A DNA stretch of 9,472 nucleotides from DATKZS01 sp035527835 [NCBI: bacterium] (lineage in GTDB: Bacteria > RBG-13-61-14), in NCBI GenBank assembly GCA_035527835.1, contig DATKZS010000238.1:1-9472 (forward strand), in the 5' to 3' direction. Of this stretch, positions 1-9,472 are shown piece by piece. The position numbers were made by a program, and so were the translations under genes. Position 1 is the first letter of the stretch. Each line of letters opens with the position of its first letter. The notes under the pieces were generated by a model. That model did not search any database, was not told where the DNA came from, and saw only the letters and a program-made list of their open reading frames with translations.

Positions 1-1035
1 GCCACCCGGCGACGGCTCCTCATCTTCATCCTCGCCTTCTTCCTCGATGTACTCATAAAAATCATCCTCGTCTTCTTCGCCGTCCCCCGCCGGCCGGCGG
101 CCCGCCAACAGCCGCGCCCCCCTCTTCTTGACCCGGTAATCGTAATCCGCGATGTCTTGCCGCACCTCCTTCATCCGCGCGGCCTTGCGGAACCAGGCCA
201 CCGCCGAAAGCAGCCCGAGCAGGCCCCAGAGCAGCGCGCCCCCGGAAAGCGCCGGGACCAGGCCGTAGGTCCATCTCACCCCCTTGAGCCACTGGGTCTC
301 CAGCGGGAACAGGGTCGAGTGGAACGCGGCCTGCAGCGCCTGGTCCGGGTCCTGCCCTTGCGCGATCAGGTCAAGGTAATGGTTAAAGGCGTCGCTCCCG
401 TACTGGTGGTAGAGAAAGCGGATGAAATCGCCCGACTGGGCATAGGCCGTGGCCGCGTCATCGGCATCGCCCGGGAAGCTGTCCTCCAAATAGCGGAACG
501 GGATGTTGCGGCCCGTGATCCCCACCCGGGCCAGCGTCTCCGCCCGCGAGTACAGCGGCTCGTCCGCCATGAACACCGCCAGCCCCTCGTCCAGCCAGCG
601 CGGGACGTGCCGCCCGCCCAGCTTGTGGTACAACACCACGTGCGTAATCTCGTGCGCGATCACCGCGTCCAGCGACGCGTGCCGCACCTCCAAGCCCGTG
701 AGCGGACGAAGATAGATAGTGGCCCGCTCCGGATACGCCATCCCCGATACCCACGGCGGCGCGCCCCCCGCGAGCTCGCGAAAAGACCGCGCGTCCGGCG
801 CCAGCACCACCGTGATCCGCGCCGGCGGGTCCGTGTGCAAAAGCCCGGTAACCCGCCCAAGCTCCGCCTCGAACTCCGGCTCAACCCGGTCCAGCAGCTT
901 CGCGGACGGCGGCAGATACAGCAGCGTGAAGTGCGGCGTGTCCCGCCGCTCCCACTCCGGCGCCGCGCGCAGGCACAGCGCCGCCATGATAATCAGTATC
1001 AGCCGGGCCCTCTCCCCGGGCCGGCCGGCCGTCAT
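1..1035 (-). CDS. Peptidase MA-like zinc metalloprotease, membrane-anchored (C-terminal part off window)
   Basis: The frame is open from 1035 to the window edge, 345 codons with no stop, so the 3' end is missing. The motif HEITH lies at residues 128-132, followed by WLDEG with E150 as the probable third zinc ligand; this HExxH...E arrangement fits gluzincins of the peptidase MA-like family. The chosen ATG at 1035 gives a basic N-terminus followed by a hydrophobic stretch (about residues 12-22), a likely signal peptide; a later ATG at 987 would lose it. A single membrane helix spans about 258-282 and is followed by a basic segment, so the catalytic domain should be outside and the tail inside. 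The tail (318-345) is extremely rich in Asp and Glu. The substrate is unknown. The gene stands alone, divergent from the tRNA and toxin-antitoxin genes, behind a promoter at 1095-1123. Family assignment is fairly sure; specific function is not. Confidence 0.85.
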   Translation of the reverse strand, partial: MTAGRPGERARLILIIMAALCLRAAPEWERRDTPHFTLLYLPPSAKLLDRVEPEFEAELGRVTGLLHTDPPARITVVLAPDARSFRELAGGAPPWVSGMAYPERATIYLRPLTGLEVRHASLDAVIAHEITHVVLYHKLGGRHVPRWLDEGLAVFMADEPLYSRAETLARVGITGRNIPFRYLEDSFPGDADDAATAYAQSGDFIRFLYHQYGSDAFNHYLDLIAQGQDPDQALQAAFHSTLFPLETQWLKGVRWTYGLVPALSGGALLWGLLGLLSAVAWFRKAARMKEVRQDIADYDYRVKKRGARLLAGRRPAGDGEEDEDDFYEYIEEEGEDEDEEPSPGG

Positions 1036-1073
1036 TGCCCGCCGCCCGCCGGCGCCCTGGTCCGCGATCTTTC

Positions 1074-1119
1074 CATGCCTCCCGCCATATTGCCATTGTA
1101 AGCGCTCCATGCTATTCTT
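1074..1119. repeat. Copy 1 of a split motif shared with 5230-5257
   Basis: CATGCCTCCCGCCATA (1074-1089) and ATGCTATTCTT (1109-1119) reappear, with one mismatch each, as CATGGCTCCCGCCATA (5230-5245) and ATGTTATTCTT (5247-5257). The two blocks are 19 bases apart here and 1 base apart in the other copy. In this copy the motif overlaps the promoter and early leader of the metalloprotease gene. It may be a small dispersed element or a regulatory site; only two copies are visible. Confidence 0.4.
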
Positions 1120-1123
1120 GCAA
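1095..1123 (-). promoter_or_regulatory. Sigma-70-type promoter of the metalloprotease gene
   Basis: Read on the - strand, a -35 box TTGCAA (1118-1123, 4 of 6 consensus bases) is followed by a 17-base spacer and a -10 box TACAAT (1095-1100, 5 of 6). Transcription would begin near 1088, giving a leader of about 50 bases before the ATG at 1035. A GGCGGGCGGCGGG stretch just before that ATG can act as a ribosome binding site. Confidence 0.6.
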
Positions 1124-1174
1124 TCATGGACCGGCGCTGGTGTTCGCTCGCGGACACTGGAGTTGCGGCCATAA

Positions 1175-1251
<77 letters not shown>

Positions 1252-1323: not shown

Positions 1324-1620
1324 ATGAAATATCGTATTGAATACTCCCCGGAGACTCTCGAACATTTAAGAGCTCTTTCCGCCCGCCAACAGGCCACGGT
1401 ATTGGACACGGTTGAAAAACAACTGAGCTTTCAGCCAACCATGGAAACCAGAAACCGGAAACCCATGCGTCCGAATCCGGTCGCGCCCTGGGAGTTGCGG
1501 ATTGGCAATCTTAGGGTCTATTATCATATTGATGGAATAGAAAGGATTGTGCGCGTTCTCGCCGTGGGAATCAAGCAAAGAGATCAGGTGAGAATTGGGA
1601 AAAAGGTGATAAAATTATGA
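1324..1620 (+). CDS. Type II toxin of the RelE/ParE family
   Basis: This 98-residue basic protein has the length and layout of RelE/ParE-fold toxins: an N-terminal strand (KYRIEYSPET), a helical middle (residues 11-35), and a C-terminal sheet with WELRIGNLRVYYHID (about 56-70) and a final RVLAVGIKQR strand. Such proteins either cut mRNA at the ribosome or poison gyrase; which applies here cannot be told. The ATG at 1324 follows GGAGG (1315-1319) at suitable spacing. The gene overlaps the antitoxin start by four bases (ATGA, 1617-1620), so toxin comes first and antitoxin second. The GC content is visibly lower than in neighbouring genes, suggesting horizontal acquisition. The partner identity strengthens the call. 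Confidence 0.88.
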   Translation: MKYRIEYSPETLEHLRALSARQQATVLDTVEKQLSFQPTMETRNRKPMRPNPVAPWELRIGNLRVYYHIDGIERIVRVLAVGIKQRDQVRIGKKVIKL

Positions 1621-1874
1621 AAACCGTGGAAGCGGCCGAAGCCAAATCGTCTCTTGGAGAGTATGCTAAAAAAGCTAAGAATGAACCGGTCATCGTCACT
1701 GCCCGGGGCAAGCCGGTTGCGGTGTTGGTAAGCATCCACAATGCGGATCTGGAAACGGTTTCCATGAGCAACAACCCCGGGTTTCTTGCCCTGATTGAGC
1801 GTTCCCGGACACGGCATATAACGGAAGGTGGAATATCCACGGAAGAAATGCGTCGTCGGCTGAAAAAAACTTGA
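1617..1874 (+). CDS. Type II antitoxin of the Phd/YefM family
   Basis: This 85-residue protein shows the Phd/YefM N-terminal fold: a start strand (MKTVEAAEAKSSLGEY), a helix with KKAKNEPVIVTARGKPVAVLVS (residues 19-40, written here as a motif span), and a more charged C-terminal part. The N-terminal domain in this family dimerises and binds the operon's own operator; the C-terminal tail (about 45-85, ending in EEMRRRLKK) wraps and neutralises the toxin. The start ATG overlaps the toxin stop and is preceded by AGGTGAT (1604-1610), so it probably has its own ribosome binding site as well as coupling. No clear operator palindrome was found upstream of the pair. The pairing of a Phd-type antitoxin with a RelE/ParE toxin is common. 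Confidence 0.9.
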   Translation: MKTVEAAEAKSSLGEYAKKAKNEPVIVTARGKPVAVLVSIHNADLETVSMSNNPGFLALIERSRTRHITEGGISTEEMRRRLKKT

Positions 1875-2795: not shown

Positions 2796-2877
2796 GCCGC
2801 AGATGAACGCAGATGAACGCGGATAAAACAATAAAAAGAATTCTTCGTATCCGCGTTCATCTGCGTTCATCTGCGGC
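2796..2877. repeat. Perfect 30-bp inverted repeat with 22-base spacer (dispersed palindrome, MITE/REP-like)
   Basis: The left arm 2796-2825 is the exact reverse complement of the right arm 2848-2877. Each arm contains the 10-base tandem unit AGATGAACGC twice (or its complement). The AT-rich spacer 2826-2847 carries an inner palindrome, AAGAATTCTT (2836-2845). As RNA this would be a very stable hairpin. It is followed by seven A residues on the + strand, and no T tract is found on either strand, so it is not a typical terminator. The short sequence resembles a palindrome I recall as recurring in intergenic regions of many environmental bacterial genomes; that recollection is unchecked. No transposase is encoded nearby. 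Confidence 0.85.
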
Positions 2878-5313: not shown

Positions 5314-7068
5314 ATGCCGGGTGAAACCGAAAAAAGGATCCAGGAGCTGATCGCGGCGGGCGAGCCTTGCCGCGGCGAGGTCTTGAATAACCTTGACTTC
5401 TCCCGCCAGCGCCTGAAGAACGCCGTGTTCGAGGGCTGCGACCTGTCCGGGTCCAACTTCTCCTTCGCCGAGCTTACGGGCGCCGTGTTCCGGGAGTGCC
5501 GGCTGGCCAAGACCTCCTTCCGCGGCGGTCTGCTCGGCCATTGCGTTTTCCACCAGTGCCAGGCGTCCGAGTCGGACTTCGAGAGTGCCGGCATGGAAGG
5601 CACGCTCTTTTATCATTCCGAGCTCGACCGCTGCCGCTTCGTGCGTACCGACTTAAGAGGCGCACGCGTCACCGAGTCCTCCTTTGAGGGCGCCGACCTC
5701 ACCGCCGCCCTGGTCACGCCCGAGCAGCTCAAGGGCGCGCGCCTGAGCAAGGCCGTGCTGGCGGAGGTCAACCTCGAAGCCGCGGACCTCTCCGGCCTCG
5801 ACCTCTCCCGCGTCAGCCTGCGCAAGGCCCGCCTCAAAAAAGCCCGGCTCGACGGCGCAACGCTCCGCGAAGCGCGCCTCGAGCTCGCGGACCTGACATC
5901 GGCCCGCGCTAAGGGCCTCCACGCCGAGTCCGCGGCCTTCACCGGCGCCAACCTCGCCGACACCGTGTTCAGCGATTCGCACCTGGCCGCCGCCGACTTC
6001 ACCGACGCCGTCCTGTCCGGCGCCCAATGGCAGGCCTGCGACCTCTCCCGCGCATCCCTGGCCGGCGCCGACGCCCGCGCCGCCAGCTTCCTCGGCTGCC
6101 AGTTCGCCGGGGCCCAGGCCAAAAACGCCAGGCTCTCAAACGCCGCCTTCATCGCCTGCGGATTCTACCGCGCCGACCTCTCATCCGCCGCCCTCGACGG
6201 CGTCCAGCTCATCAACCCCGACCTCGAAGCCGCCACCCTCGCCGGCGCGCGGCTCGCCGGACTCAATCTCAGCCAGGCCAACCTTAAAACCGCGCATCTC
6301 GCCGGCGCCGACCTGTCCTCGGCTAACCTCTCCGGCGCCGACCTCTCCCTGGCCGACCTCGCCGGCGCCGACCTCGCCAAGGCCGGACTCGCCGGTTCCA
6401 ACATGACCGGCGCCAGGCTCGCTACAGCCAGGCTCCGCGGCGCCAACCTCTCCGGTGCGCGACTCGACCGCGCCGACCTCGACCACGCCGACCTGCAAAA
6501 CGCCAACCTCTCCCGGACCATCATGCGCGACGCAATCATGACCCGAACCAACCTCGCCGCCGCCAACCTCACCGAGGCCGAGCTCGCCAGGGTCCAGATG
6601 TCAGGCGCCGACCTCACCGGCGCCCGCCTGGAAGGAGCCAAAATCACCCGCAAGGAATCAACGCCGTCATGCCCCGTCTGCGGCTCCGAGCTCGAACCCG
6701 ACGGCTCGTGCGGCTCCTGTAAAAAACAGGAGATCGGCGCCCTCATCTTGTCCCGGCGCTCCCGGCCCGTGTACCTCGCCCTCCTCATCTGCCTGCTGGC
6801 CGGACCCCTCAACCTCGTGTTCACCCCGCTGTTCGCCGCCGCCGCCGGAGGCTGGTACTCCGGAATGCACGCCTTCGGCATCGGCTGGCCCATAGGCATC
6901 GCCCTGTCCCTTCTCGCCCTCCTCCTGGGCGCCCTGACCTCAAGAAAAAGCGAGGGCCGCGAGCGCAGGCTGTTCATCGCCAACACCTTCCTGGCCTGCG
7001 TCAACGTCCTGGTGCTGGGCGCGACGCTTGCCGCGCTCTGGCGGCTGGGGGCGCCGTTATGGAGATGA
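5314..7068 (+). CDS. Pentapeptide-repeat protein with zinc ribbon and three C-terminal membrane helices
   Basis: The 584-residue product is mostly pentapeptide repeats of the A(D/N)LXX type, from about residue 22 to 445, which fold as a right-handed square beta-helix. The first 110 residues are less regular with central Phe and several Cys (CDLSGSNFSFAEL type); the middle and end are near-perfect, for example GADLSSANLSGADLSLADL. A zinc ribbon follows, with C453/C456 and C466/C469. Three hydrophobic helices (about 486-508, 523-541, 553-576) then anchor the protein, so the beta-helix and ribbon probably face the cytoplasm. No enzymatic motif is present; a scaffold or binding role is inference. 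The ATG at 5314 has only a distant AGGGGA (5295-5300), so its start is the least certain part. The stop overlaps possible starts of the next gene. The repeat-rich DNA gives long meaningless frames on the other strand. Confidence 0.9.
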   Translation: MPGETEKRIQELIAAGEPCRGEVLNNLDFSRQRLKNAVFEGCDLSGSNFSFAELTGAVFRECRLAKTSFRGGLLGHCVFHQCQASESDFESAGMEGTLFYHSELDRCRFVRTDLRGARVTESSFEGADLTAALVTPEQLKGARLSKAVLAEVNLEAADLSGLDLSRVSLRKARLKKARLDGATLREARLELADLTSARAKGLHAESAAFTGANLADTVFSDSHLAAADFTDAVLSGAQWQACDLSRASLAGADARAASFLGCQFAGAQAKNARLSNAAFIACGFYRADLSSAALDGVQLINPDLEAATLAGARLAGLNLSQANLKTAHLAGADLSSANLSGADLSLADLAGADLAKAGLAGSNMTGARLATARLRGANLSGARLDRADLDHADLQNANLSRTIMRDAIMTRTNLAAANLTEAELARVQMSGADLTGARLEGAKITRKESTPSCPVCGSELEPDGSCGSCKKQEIGALILSRRSRPVYLALLICLLAGPLNLVFTPLFAAAAGGWYSGMHAFGIGWPIGIALSLLALLLGALTSRKSEGRERRLFIANTFLACVNVLVLGATLAALWRLGAPLWR

Positions 7069-7070
7069 AG

Positions 7071-7634
7071 ATGCGCGTGCTCCTGCACTCCTGCTGCGGC
7101 CCGTGCAGCGTATATCCGTTGGACGCCCTGCGCGCGGAGGGCCACGAGCCCAGCCTGTTCTTTTTCAATCCCAACATCCAGCCGTTTAAGGAGTACGAGA
7201 AGCGGCGGGGCGCGGTGAAGCTGCTCGCCGAGAAAAGCGGCGTGGAGCTCGCGGTGGACGACGCGTATGACGTGGTCGAGTGGCTGCGCATGATGGTGTT
7301 CCGCGAGCCCGGCCGCTGCCTGGTCTGCTACCGCCACCGCCTGGCCCGCGCCGCCCGCGCCGCCAAAGAGGGCGGGTTCGAGGCCTTCACCACCAGCCTC
7401 CTCTACTCCCGCCATCAGAAGCACGAGCTGATCCGAGAGCTCGCCTCGGCCGTGAGCGAAGAAGAGGGCGTGCCCTTCCTCTACCGCGACTTCCGCAAGG
7501 GATACCAGGCCGGCATCGAGGCCGGAAAAAAACTGGGGCTCTATCGCCAGCAGTACTGCGGCTGCATCTACAGCGAGCAGGAGAGGTATCTGGGGCCTCT
7601 CCATAAAAACCCGGACGCGGGGGGCCGGCCATGA
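7071..7634 (+). CDS. queH: Epoxyqueuosine reductase QueH
   Basis: QueH carries out the last step of queuosine synthesis, reducing epoxyqueuosine to queuosine at the wobble base of tRNAs for Tyr, His, Asn and Asp; it is the non-homologous alternative to cobalamin-dependent QueG. The 187-residue product has the family's cysteine pattern: HSCCGPC (C8, C9, C12), RCLVCYRHRL (C83, C86) and YCGC (C163, C165), which serve the iron-sulfur and iron centre in this family. It also has FFFNPNIQP (30-38) and TTSLLYSRHQ (107-116). Three in-frame ATGs are possible (7059, 7065, 7071). I prefer 7071 because GGAG (7061-7064) is six bases upstream and the protein then begins directly at the first strand; 7065 would give an ATGA overlap with the upstream gene. 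The 3' end overlaps the kinase start by four bases. No other queuosine genes are in the window. Confidence 0.93.
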   Translation: MRVLLHSCCGPCSVYPLDALRAEGHEPSLFFFNPNIQPFKEYEKRRGAVKLLAEKSGVELAVDDAYDVVEWLRMMVFREPGRCLVCYRHRLARAARAAKEGGFEAFTTSLLYSRHQKHELIRELASAVSEEEGVPFLYRDFRKGYQAGIEAGKKLGLYRQQYCGCIYSEQERYLGPLHKNPDAGGRP

Positions 7635-9472
7635 ACCTGCCCGCGCTGCCCATGCTCGATTACGAATATCTTCTGGCCGCCTCCGGAGCGGCCGCCGGGC
7701 TGCTCCTCCTCTTCTTCCTCCTCATGTACCGCCGGGAGGAGCACCTCGCCGGCTACGGCGCCAAGGTGGCCCTGGAGGGAAAGAGCAAGAAGTGGATCGA
7801 GAAGAAGGCTAACGAGCTGACCCGCGTCGAGGCCTTCCGCCTGGCCGGAGACCTCCGCGCCCACCTCGGCCAGTGGGACGAAGCCGCCGAGCTGTATAAA
7901 AAAGGCGGCAACCTGATCCGCGCCGCCGAGAGCTACCTGCAAAACAACAAGAGCGACCTGGCCGCCTCGGCCTACCTGCAAAGCAAAAATTACGACCGCG
8001 CCGCGTCCCTCTTCCTGGAAAACGGCAACCATAAAATGGCCGCGGAGTCATACCTCAAGGCTCTCGACCCGATCAAGGCCGCACAAACCTACGAGCGCGG
8101 AGGGCTCATCGAACCCGCCGGTGAAATTTACGTGGAACAGGGGCTCTACCGCCGCGCCGCCGAGACCTACGCCAAAAAGGAAATCTGGACCCGCGCCGCC
8201 GATGCCCTGTGGCGCTGCTACAGCCAGGAGCTCACGCGCCTGCCGGAGGACGTGGCCAAGGCCTCCAGCATGCCGCTCCGATTGCTCGCCCGCGAGGCGG
8301 GCGAGATGTTTGCCCGGGCCGGCCGCCCCGACGAGGCGGTCGAGGCCTTCAAGACCGGAGGATGGGCCGCGCGGGGGGCCGAGGTACTAAAGGACCAGGC
8401 GCGCTTCACGGAGGCCGCCGAGGCCTATTTCGAGGCCGGCATGGCGCTTCCCGCCGCCGAGTGTTACGAGAAGGCCGGCCTTCCGGCCAAGGCCGCCGCC
8501 ATCAAATCGCGCTATCACTTGGACCGTGGCGAGGAGGTCGAGGCCGTCCCCTTCCTCGAGCTCGCCGGTGACTTCCCCAAGGCCGCGGAGATTTACCAGA
8601 AGCTGGAAAAGTGGCCGCAGGCCGCCGAGACCTATGAAAAGGCCGGACTCTTCAAGCAAGCCGCCGCCATGTACGAGAAGGCCCAAGAGTTCGAGCTCGC
8701 CGGCGCCAGCCTGGAAAAGGCCCAGGACTTCCGCGCCGCCGCCGAGCTCTACGGCCGCGCCGGAAACGCCTCCGCCCAGGCCGACGCCCTGGAAAAGGCC
8801 GGAGACTTCCTGGCCGCCGGCCAGAACTTTTTCGAGCGCGGCCTGCTCGACAAGGCCATCGCGGCGCTGCAGCAGGTCGAGCCGAGCCGGGAAGACTACA
8901 AGCCCGCGTCCCTGCTCCTGGGGCAGGTCTTCAAGGAAAAGGGCATGCTCGACCTGGCCCACGAATATTTCAAGCGCTCGGTCGCGGACGAGGAGGTCTC
9001 ACGCGGAAACCTCGACAACTATTACCAGCTCGCCGTGTGCGCCGAGCGCTTGAACAACCCCGAGGAGGCCGCGCGCATTTTCGAGCAGATCCTGGTGGCG
9101 GACTTTCATTTCAAGGACGTGGCCAACCGCCTCAACGCCATCAAGTCCGCCCGCACCGTTCTGGAGACGCCGAGCACGCCGTCCAGCTTCGACGCCACCG
9201 TGTCGCGGAGCAGCCTGGAGGGACCCCAACCCCAGCCCGAGTCCGTGGCCCAGACCGAGCGCTATTCCCTGATCGAGGAGATCGGAAGGGGCGGAATGGG
9301 GATCGTGTACAAGGCCAAGGACAACGTCCTCGAACGCATCGTCGCCTTCAAGGTCCTGCCCGCCAATCTCAAGGAACACCCCCAGGCCCTCAAAAATTTC
9401 TTCCGCGAGGCCAAGAGCGCCGCCCGTCTCAACCACCCCAATATCGTCACCGTCTTTGACGCCGGCGACGAG
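7631..9472 (+). CDS. Membrane-anchored Ser/Thr protein kinase with N-terminal 13-residue helical repeats (3' end off window)
   Basis: The frame is open for 614 codons to the window edge. It starts at ATG 7631, overlapping the queH stop (ATGA). A single membrane helix (about 14-33) is followed by RRE, so the rest is probably cytoplasmic. Residues 72-188 and 223-421 are a helical scaffold in units of 13 residues (consensus AAexYxkaGxxxx), interrupted at 189-222 and by a four-residue insertion near 288-304. A more TPR-like part follows (about 424-505), then a Ser/Thr/Pro-rich linker (506-545). The Hanks-type kinase domain begins near 546: glycine loop IGRGGMGIVYKA (551-562), ATP-binding K574 in VAFK, and helix-C E593. 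The catalytic HRD and DFG motifs would lie beyond the window, so activity cannot be confirmed. The scaffold probably binds partners and the linker may be phosphorylated; both are inference. Confidence 0.9.
   Translation, partial: MNLPALPMLDYEYLLAASGAAAGLLLLFFLLMYRREEHLAGYGAKVALEGKSKKWIEKKANELTRVEAFRLAGDLRAHLGQWDEAAELYKKGGNLIRAAESYLQNNKSDLAASAYLQSKNYDRAASLFLENGNHKMAAESYLKALDPIKAAQTYERGGLIEPAGEIYVEQGLYRRAAETYAKKEIWTRAADALWRCYSQELTRLPEDVAKASSMPLRLLAREAGEMFARAGRPDEAVEAFKTGGWAARGAEVLKDQARFTEAAEAYFEAGMALPAAECYEKAGLPAKAAAIKSRYHLDRGEEVEAVPFLELAGDFPKAAEIYQKLEKWPQAAETYEKAGLFKQAAAMYEKAQEFELAGASLEKAQDFRAAAELYGRAGNASAQADALEKAGDFLAAGQNFFERGLLDKAIAALQQVEPSREDYKPASLLLGQVFKEKGMLDLAHEYFKRSVADEEVSRGNLDNYYQLAVCAERLNNPEEAARIFEQILVADFHFKDVANRLNAIKSARTVLETPSTPSSFDATVSRSSLEGPQPQPESVAQTERYSLIEEIGRGGMGIVYKAKDNVLERIVAFKVLPANLKEHPQALKNFFREAKSAARLNHPNIVTVFDAGDE

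What the first reader, a model, noticed from the sequence alone, without database searches (positions are those of the whole stretch)
7844..8893. Kinase scaffold built on a strict 13-residue (39-base) helical repeat
From residue 72, nine units follow at exactly 13 residues, each opening with AA or AG and having an aromatic or large hydrophobic residue at position 5. After an interruption at 189-222, fourteen to fifteen more units follow to about residue 421 with only one four-residue slip. Ordinary TPRs step by 34 residues. A one-helix-per-13 step recalls the solenoid parts of eukaryotic IFT or coatomer-type proteins (a resemblance in pattern only). Fused to a membrane anchor and a Hanks kinase, it could be an unusual sensor or assembly platform.
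Basis: partly seen in the sequence, partly recalled or inferred. Interest (0 to 1): 0.65.

Follow-up and report, generated by a model that had tools for sequence, protein, structure and literature searches.

The report
Bacterial kinase with 13-residue helix repeats
A bacterial, probably membrane-anchored protein kinase carries a long stretch of about 25 similar 13-residue helical units, a shorter step than that of ordinary bacterial helix repeats and like that of some eukaryotic cilium-transport proteins, and related bacterial kinases share the design.

Summary
In the ORF 7631-9472(+), 614 aa and open at the window end, residues 72-421 follow a 13-residue step (lag-13 autocorrelation z=10.55; lags 26, 39 and 52 next). 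The 34-residue step of TPRs is absent (z=-2.0). It is a family trait: in 25 of 25 aligned members (the window and 24 relatives, 25-33% identical to it) the top lag is 13, 26 or 39. A single-sequence AlphaFold model shows a 10-residue helix plus a 3-residue turn per unit in residues 95-182 with high confidence; residues 341-414 are not resolved that way. About 425-510 are TPR-like, beside a Hanks kinase cut off by the window end. A solenoid-only profile finds IFT172 first in the PDB (E 5e-26), but a designed TPR array scores nearly as well (8.3e-25). The solenoid is modular: relatives carry an active kinase, a degenerate plus an active kinase in tandem, a cNMP-binding domain, a GreA/B C-terminal domain or a UvrD helicase. 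Best reading: a membrane-tethered scaffold that brings partners or substrates to the kinase; function is inferred. New variant of a known kind.

The parts
7631..9472 (+). ORF of the solenoid kinase, 614 aa, open at the window end; its ATG overlaps the end of the upstream queH frame (7059-7634)
7664..7729 (+). probable N-terminal membrane helix (about aa 12-33), followed by RREE
   Evidence: hydropathy only; 11 of 25 members pass the same threshold
7844..8194 (+). block 1: nine strict 13-residue units (aa 72-188)
   Evidence: one helix per unit in the model
8195..8296 (+). interruption (aa 189-222), opening with a tenth unit-like start; same place in relatives
   Evidence: longer helices in the model
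8297..8893 (+). block 2: about 15 further units (aa 223-421) with one 4-residue slip before aa 305
   Evidence: aa 341-414 not resolved as 13-residue helices in the model
8903..9160 (+). TPR-like cap next to the kinase (about aa 425-510)
   Evidence: Pfam TPR best stretches at 462-490; TPR structures align to model residues about 352-462, that is aa 402-512
9263..9472 (+). start of a Hanks-type Ser/Thr kinase domain (aa 545-614; glycine loop and VAFK), cut by the window end
   Evidence: Pkinase 38.9 bits, cut-off 31.7

Best explanation
It is a Ser/Thr kinase, probably membrane-tethered, whose N-terminal part is an alpha-solenoid of about 25 quasi-equivalent 13-residue helical units, closed by TPR-like repeats against the kinase. 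Shown: the 13-residue step, its conservation in the family, the kinase domain start. Predicted: one helix of about 10 residues plus a turn per unit (block 1), one N-terminal membrane helix, cytosolic solenoid and kinase. Inferred: the solenoid surface binds partner or substrate proteins, and the TPR cap positions them for the kinase or relays binding to it, as the TPR domain is proposed to do in PknG.
For: Step. Control: of 12 loci brought in by weak TPR hits, the best ORF has lag 34 as its top lag in 7 (L082, L085, L119, L121, L122, L123, L128), lag 40 in L120, lag 29 with 34 close behind in L084, no clear period in L081, L083, L086; the largest lag-13 z printed is 1.7. Family: 25 of 25 members have lag 13, 26 or 39 on top and a negative lag-34 z; Pkinase matches 25 of 25. 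Position-1 Ala is present in 24 of 24 rows of A2 at 8 of 25 unit starts, and in at least 12 of 24 at each of the 25 (A2 leaves out the partial member L113). Model: helices 45-54, 58-67, 71-80, 84-93, 97-106, 110-119, 123-132 (model numbering, add 50), block pLDDT 90-95. Modularity: of 10 further solenoid ORFs given to Pfam, three have cNMP_binding (L155, L168, L170), two a GreA_GreB C-terminal domain (L158, L159), one a UvrD helicase (L163), one kinases (L164), three only repeat models (L153, L154, L157). In 11 of 24 relatives the kinase next to the solenoid lacks an HRD motif by pattern search; 8 of those 11 carry a second kinase with HRD and DFG, which fits a binding or regulatory role. PknG precedent: passages of PMC8546545.
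Against: No ligand, substrate or experiment is known. In the flanks held, gene neighbours are shared only within subgroups of relatives and none with the window, so no partner is suggested. The model is from a single sequence (pTM 0.51; five models from 81.8 down to 44.8 mean pLDDT) and two long helices replace the 13-step in aa 341-414; a second fold of aa 209-516 did not settle it (mean pLDDT 74.4). Only 11 of 25 members have a membrane helix at the threshold used (starts of the relatives' ORFs were not fixed), so tethering is not a family trait. The window's own catalytic motifs lie beyond the window.
Confidence: 0.6

Rival explanations
1. Ordinary TPR kinase: the region is a diverged TPR array and the 13-step is a by-product of Ala/Tyr/Gly-rich helices.
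For: Four TPR models pass their cut-offs for the whole window protein by some bits (TPR_7 42.5, TPR_2 37.5, TPR_6 33.6, TPR_1 31.2), with several stretches of which only the best is located. In L124 and L103 the best TPR stretches lie inside the solenoid (203-232, 399-419). A designed TPR array scores E 8.3e-25 with the solenoid profile.
Against: Lag-34 z is negative in 25 of 25 members, while TPR ORFs give lag 34. In one search the designed TPR stretches of 192-194 columns need seven gaps, in step with its 34-residue repeat. The best TPR stretch of the window lies at 462-490. Block 1 helices of the model are 13 apart.
Confidence: 0.17
2. The solenoid is mainly a self-assembly element, a coat- or IFT-train-like polymer at the membrane, with the kinase as cargo or regulator.
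For: Profile similarity to IFT172, IFT140 and IFT144 and to the Pfam Clathrin model (24 of 25 members at E<=0.01); probable membrane anchor; units alike.
Against: No beta-propeller in the window protein, which the coat architecture has; profile likeness does not imply assembly; fold superpositions are poor.
Confidence: 0.1
3. The solenoid is an intramolecular regulator of the kinase (ligand- or strain-sensing) with no stable protein partner.
For: Fusion to cNMP-binding domains and degenerate/active kinase tandems in relatives suggest regulation.
Against: It is also fused to a GreA/B C-terminal domain and to a helicase; nothing shows ligand binding.
Confidence: 0.13

Closest known systems
IFT172 and IFT-A solenoids (IFT140, IFT144, IFT122, WDR35)
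   Same: IFT172 is the best PDB match of the solenoid profile (E 5e-26); some IFT172 stretches align over 113-163 columns with one gap; top Foldseek chain is from IFT-A.
   Different: Those are eukaryotic and carry N-terminal WD40 propellers (recalled); here an anchor and a kinase are attached. The best IFT172 stretch has five gaps. Common descent is not shown.
Tetratricopeptide repeats (TPR)
   Same: Helical solenoid with similar Ala/Tyr/Gly helices; aa 425-510 are TPR-like; TPR models match.
   Different: Step 13, not 34; no consistent alternation of unit types in the window, though lag 26 exceeds lag 13 in 5 of 25 members.
PknG of actinobacteria (TPR and Ser/Thr kinase)
   Same: Bacterial Ser/Thr kinase whose helical-repeat domain is proposed to couple a membrane partner to substrate phosphorylation (PMC8546545, passages).
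   Different: In PknG the TPR domain is C-terminal; here a 13-step solenoid precedes the kinase.
PVC membrane coat-like proteins
   Same: Bacterial alpha-solenoids, also in Planctomycetes (PMC2799638, passages).
   Different: Defined there by a beta-propeller followed by the solenoid; no propeller in the window protein.

Membership tests
Tetratricopeptide repeat (aa 72-421) | 34-residue helix-turn-helix period | tested here: not met
   lag-34 z=-2.0; negative in 25 of 25 members; the statistic gives lag 34 on top in 7 of 12 control loci
Tetratricopeptide repeat (aa about 425-510) | match to TPR models | tested here: met
   scores above cut-off with best stretches at 462-490; TPR structures align at model 352-462
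IFT-type solenoid | sequence-profile similarity | tested here: met
   IFT172 E 5e-26, IFT-A subunits from 8.2e-19 down; a designed TPR scores nearly as well
IFT-type solenoid | same helix step of about 13 residues | tested here: inconclusive
   IFT172 stretches of 163 columns (37.2 bits) and 113 columns (21.0 bits) align with one gap each, but the best stretch (38.2 bits) has five gaps of 2-6 residues; the IFT sequences themselves were not tested for period
IFT-type solenoid | overall fold superposition | tested here: inconclusive
   Foldseek E 1.7e-7 but TM 0.25/0.13, rmsd 19.2 A; VIA Z 13.8 at 2.7 A covers model 352-459, the TPR cap
IFT or clathrin/coatomer subunit | N-terminal beta-propeller before the solenoid | tested here: not met
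   no propeller family among the 23 listed for the window; only about 70 residues precede the repeats. The family list shows 25 of 54 families
Clathrin repeat (PF00637) | score above curated cut-off | tested here: met
   41.3 against 29.6 bits; clathrin heavy chain itself only E 5.7e-4 in the PDB
Hanks-type Ser/Thr kinase | kinase domain with glycine loop and VAxK lysine | tested here: met
Hanks-type Ser/Thr kinase | HRD and DFG motifs in the window protein | not testable with these tools
   the window ends at aa 614; 13 of 24 relatives have both in the kinase next to the solenoid
PknG | TPR domain C-terminal to the kinase | tested here: not met
   repeats precede the kinase; PknG layout from passages of PMC8546545

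The most novel reading that the evidence does not exclude
The 13-residue unit is an unrecognised bacterial repeat family of its own: a single-helix solenoid module of Acidobacteriota and Planctomycetota signalling proteins, attached to kinases, degenerate-plus-active kinase tandems, cNMP-binding, transcription-factor and helicase domains, and sharing its step with, possibly being a bacterial root of, the IFT172-type solenoids of eukaryotes.
Probability: 0.3. Interest if true: 0.75.

Novelty: new variant of a known kind. Interest (0 to 1): 0.52.

Why it matters
A uniform one-helix repeat kept through a protein family would be a natural design rule for alpha-solenoids beside TPR, HEAT and Sel1 (recalled), and a test case for whether the short-step solenoids of cilia and coats have bacterial counterparts. 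The family also offers bacterial degenerate/active kinase tandems next to a scaffold, a layout that recalls eukaryotic JAKs (recalled), in phyla whose signalling is little studied.

Tried and rejected
Relatives by direct scan: the search for related loci with the solenoid in genome contigs found none; plasmids and phages no match. Zixibacteria: 20 of 132 genomes gave weak matches only, best 8.5e-6; a profile search of 98 genomes of an overlapping set found none at 1e-20 (the tool notes that an empty answer without a positive shows nothing). Class of G455 and order of G446 hold one genome each. The searches scored only a few candidates per genome, so counts are lower bounds.

Host: a RuvB tree of 103 rows leaves the window unplaced (end branch 0.5, no starred set holds it; nearest rows Zixibacteria and Planctomycetota).

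Recent DNA duplication was rejected: TRF found nothing; 62 of 84 identical residue pairs at lag 13 share a codon against 52.4 expected. Unit-by-unit inheritance is only moderately supported: the in-register alignment beats shifted ones in 17, 19 and 14 of 23 relatives for three stretches.

Anti-phage defence: PADLOC models match through the kinase domain, some (mad6) reaching into the TPR cap (6 proteins scanned, lists cut at 25); not taken as evidence. NCBIfam: the window's best match is far below its cut-off, 91.1 against 450 bits, the protein being cut off. General operon partner: none found.

Literature: the searches listed no paper that describes this family by its title and abstract start; one search listed 10 of 63 papers and 10 of 11; only open-licence PMC papers are held. 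Seen as passages: PMC8546545, PMC2799638, PMC4773986; the others only in listings.

Mended after checking: the control count is 7 of 12 (not 8); the IFT172 alignments are less clean than first written, and TPR stretches fall inside the solenoid of two relatives, so I lowered the best explanation from 0.62 to 0.60 and raised the TPR rival from 0.15 to 0.17.

Full report
What is there. The ORF at 7631-9472(+) encodes 614 residues and runs off the window. Pfam gives the start of a protein kinase at 545-611 (38.9 bits, cut-off 31.7), TPR models whose best stretches lie at 462-490, and the Clathrin repeat model (41.3 against 29.6 bits) with its best stretch at 309-357. A hydrophobic stretch from about residue 12 is a probable membrane helix; the RR after it suggests that solenoid and kinase face the cytosol (positive-inside rule, recalled). 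No whole genome is held for the window.

The repeat is real. For residues 61-500 the lag-13 autocorrelation stands 10.55 standard deviations above 500 shuffles, with 26, 39 and 52 next. Nine of nine block-1 units open with AA or AG and 8 of 9 have a hydrophobic residue at position 5; in the 13 block-2 units scored these are 9 and 13. Similarity between units shows no consistent odd/even alternation (block 1 slightly favours odd distances, block 2 even ones). The period is one of protein, not of recent DNA duplication: no tandem array by TRF and only a mild excess of shared codons, 62 of 84 against 52.4 expected.

It is a family trait. A search of 297 genomes of the phylum of L068 (record title: Acidobacteria) gave matches at E<=1e-3 in 159; many of the weak ones are probably ordinary TPR similarity. 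The twelve best rows span at least 427 of 516 query residues at 27-34% identity (E 5.5e-50 to 2.2e-36). In the phylum of L016 (record title: Planctomycetota) 6 of 392 genomes match at 1e-15. From the loci fetched by then I took the ORFs that match the window's solenoid by phmmer with E of 2.4e-28 or better, 24 in all; the next one, L128 (4.3e-14), was left out. With the window they make the 25 rows of A1. In 25 of 25 the strongest lag is 13, 26 or 39 (26 in five, 39 in two, one of these a tie) and the lag-34 z is negative. The same statistic gives lag 34 on top for the best ORF of 7 of 12 control loci brought in by weak TPR hits; L120 shows lag 40, L084 lag 29 with 34 close behind, and three show no clear period; none has a lag-13 peak. 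In A2, the solenoid alignment of 24 rows (L113, partial, left out), alanine at unit position 1 is present in all rows at 72, 111, 176, 189, 236, 262, 275 and 344.

Structure. AlphaFold on residues 51-516 alone gave mean pLDDT 81.8 and pTM 0.51; the other four models were worse, down to 44.8. In residues 95-182 helices of ten residues start exactly 13 apart, with block pLDDT 90-95. Parts of block 2 keep a 13-residue spacing too (for example model helices starting at 252, 265 and 278), but from 341 to 414 the model shows two long helices with block pLDDT about 51-81, which does not confirm the step there. A second fold of 209-516 was no better (mean 74.4). Foldseek ranks an IFT-A chain first (E 1.7e-7), but superpositions are poor (TM 0.25 and 0.13, rmsd 19.2 A). 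The VIA look puts IFT-A first (Z 13.8), at good rmsd only over the TPR cap.

Kinship. A profile of the solenoid alone finds IFT172 first in the PDB (5e-26), then a designed TPR protein (8.3e-25; a 16-repeat array by its title), IFT-A subunits from 8.2e-19 down, SNAPs from 2.4e-7, and clathrin heavy chain at 5.7e-4. Scores of repeats add up over many registers, so these E-values overstate kinship. In the alignments one IFT172 stretch of 163 columns (37.2 bits) has one 6-residue gap and one of 113 columns (21.0 bits) one 2-residue gap; a third of 104 columns, also with one 2-residue gap, is not significant (5.7 bits); and the best stretch (38.2 bits, 267 columns) has five gaps of 2-6 residues. 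The designed TPR (37.5 and 37.8 bits) has seven gaps over 192-194 columns. This hints that IFT172 shares the step in part; it does not prove it, and it does not show common descent. TPR models also match inside the solenoid of some relatives (L124 at 203-232, L103 at 399-419).

What the family looks like. Among the 24 relatives, 13 have one kinase with HRD and DFG motifs; 8 have a degenerate kinase followed by a second with HRD and DFG; 2 have only a degenerate one; 1, with a degenerate one, is cut by its contig end (pattern search). Eleven of 25 pass the membrane-helix threshold. Nineteen further loci were fetched to look at other matches (20 regions asked, one already held as L113); 18 of them hold an ORF that the solenoid profile matches. 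Ten of these ORFs were given to Pfam: cNMP-binding domain in L155, L168 and L170; GreA/GreB C-terminal domain in L158 and L159; UvrD helicase in L163; kinases in L164; only repeat models in L153, L154 and L157. The solenoid is therefore a module. Within the flanks held, neighbouring genes are shared only inside subgroups; in L101, L102, L108 and L111 the gene directly downstream is recA (Pfam on L102's only; the others by similarity). None of the window's neighbouring ORFs was matched in those flanks.

How it most likely works. Shown: step, conservation, modularity, kinase start. Predicted: one helix per unit, membrane helix. Inferred: the solenoid holds a partner or substrate near the membrane, and the TPR cap positions it for the kinase or relays binding. 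PknG is the nearest worked example: its TPR domain is proposed as a localisation scaffold linking a membrane protein to substrate phosphorylation (PMC8546545, passages). Loss of the HRD motif in the kinase nearest the solenoid in 11 of 24 relatives fits a module kept for binding or regulation.

Novelty. The parts are known kinds: alpha-solenoid, TPR, Hanks kinase. A uniform 13-residue step kept through a bacterial kinase family was not found described in the listings of my searches of the held open-licence papers. I rate it a new variant of a known kind.

Noticed in passing
window 1324-1617 and 1617-1871 (+): Toxin-first type II pair: ParE-like toxin (27.7 bits, cut-off 23) and Phd/YefM-like antitoxin (41.3, cut-off 29.8), in a stretch of lower GC, about 0.49.
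   Followed up: partly
window 1175-1251 (+): tRNA-Pro (anticodon tgg), just before the toxin-antitoxin pair.
   Followed up: no
window 2796-2825 and 2848-2877: Perfect 30-nt inverted repeat with a 22-nt spacer, between the YebC-like and RuvC-like ORFs.
   Followed up: no
window 5314-7068 (+): Long pentapeptide-repeat protein (232.5 bits); by eye a CxxC zinc-ribbon-like stretch and hydrophobic C-terminal segments follow the repeats.
   Followed up: partly
window 1-1233 (-): Peptidase MA superfamily protein (60.9 bits, cut-off 32.4), cut by the window start.
   Followed up: no
window 7059-7634 (+): QueH, epoxyqueuosine reductase; its end overlaps the kinase ATG at 7631, so the two may be translationally coupled. 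Not matched in the relatives' flanks.
   Followed up: partly
L101, L102, L108, L111: recA lies directly downstream of the solenoid kinase in these four relatives (Pfam on L102's only); the window's kinase lies a few genes after ruvC-ruvA-ruvB. A possible link to recombination genes was not pursued.
   Followed up: no
L103, L105, L107, L109, L112, L113, L115, L118: Tandem kinases after the solenoid: the first lacks an HRD motif, the second has HRD and DFG.
   Followed up: partly
L163:216-4511 (+): UvrD-type helicase followed by a long 13-step solenoid (lag-13 z 10.0).
   Followed up: partly
L158:1419-2513 (-), L159:1861-2928 (+): GreA/GreB C-terminal domain fused to the solenoid; lag 13 is on top in L159, while lag 52 is on top in L158.
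   Followed up: partly
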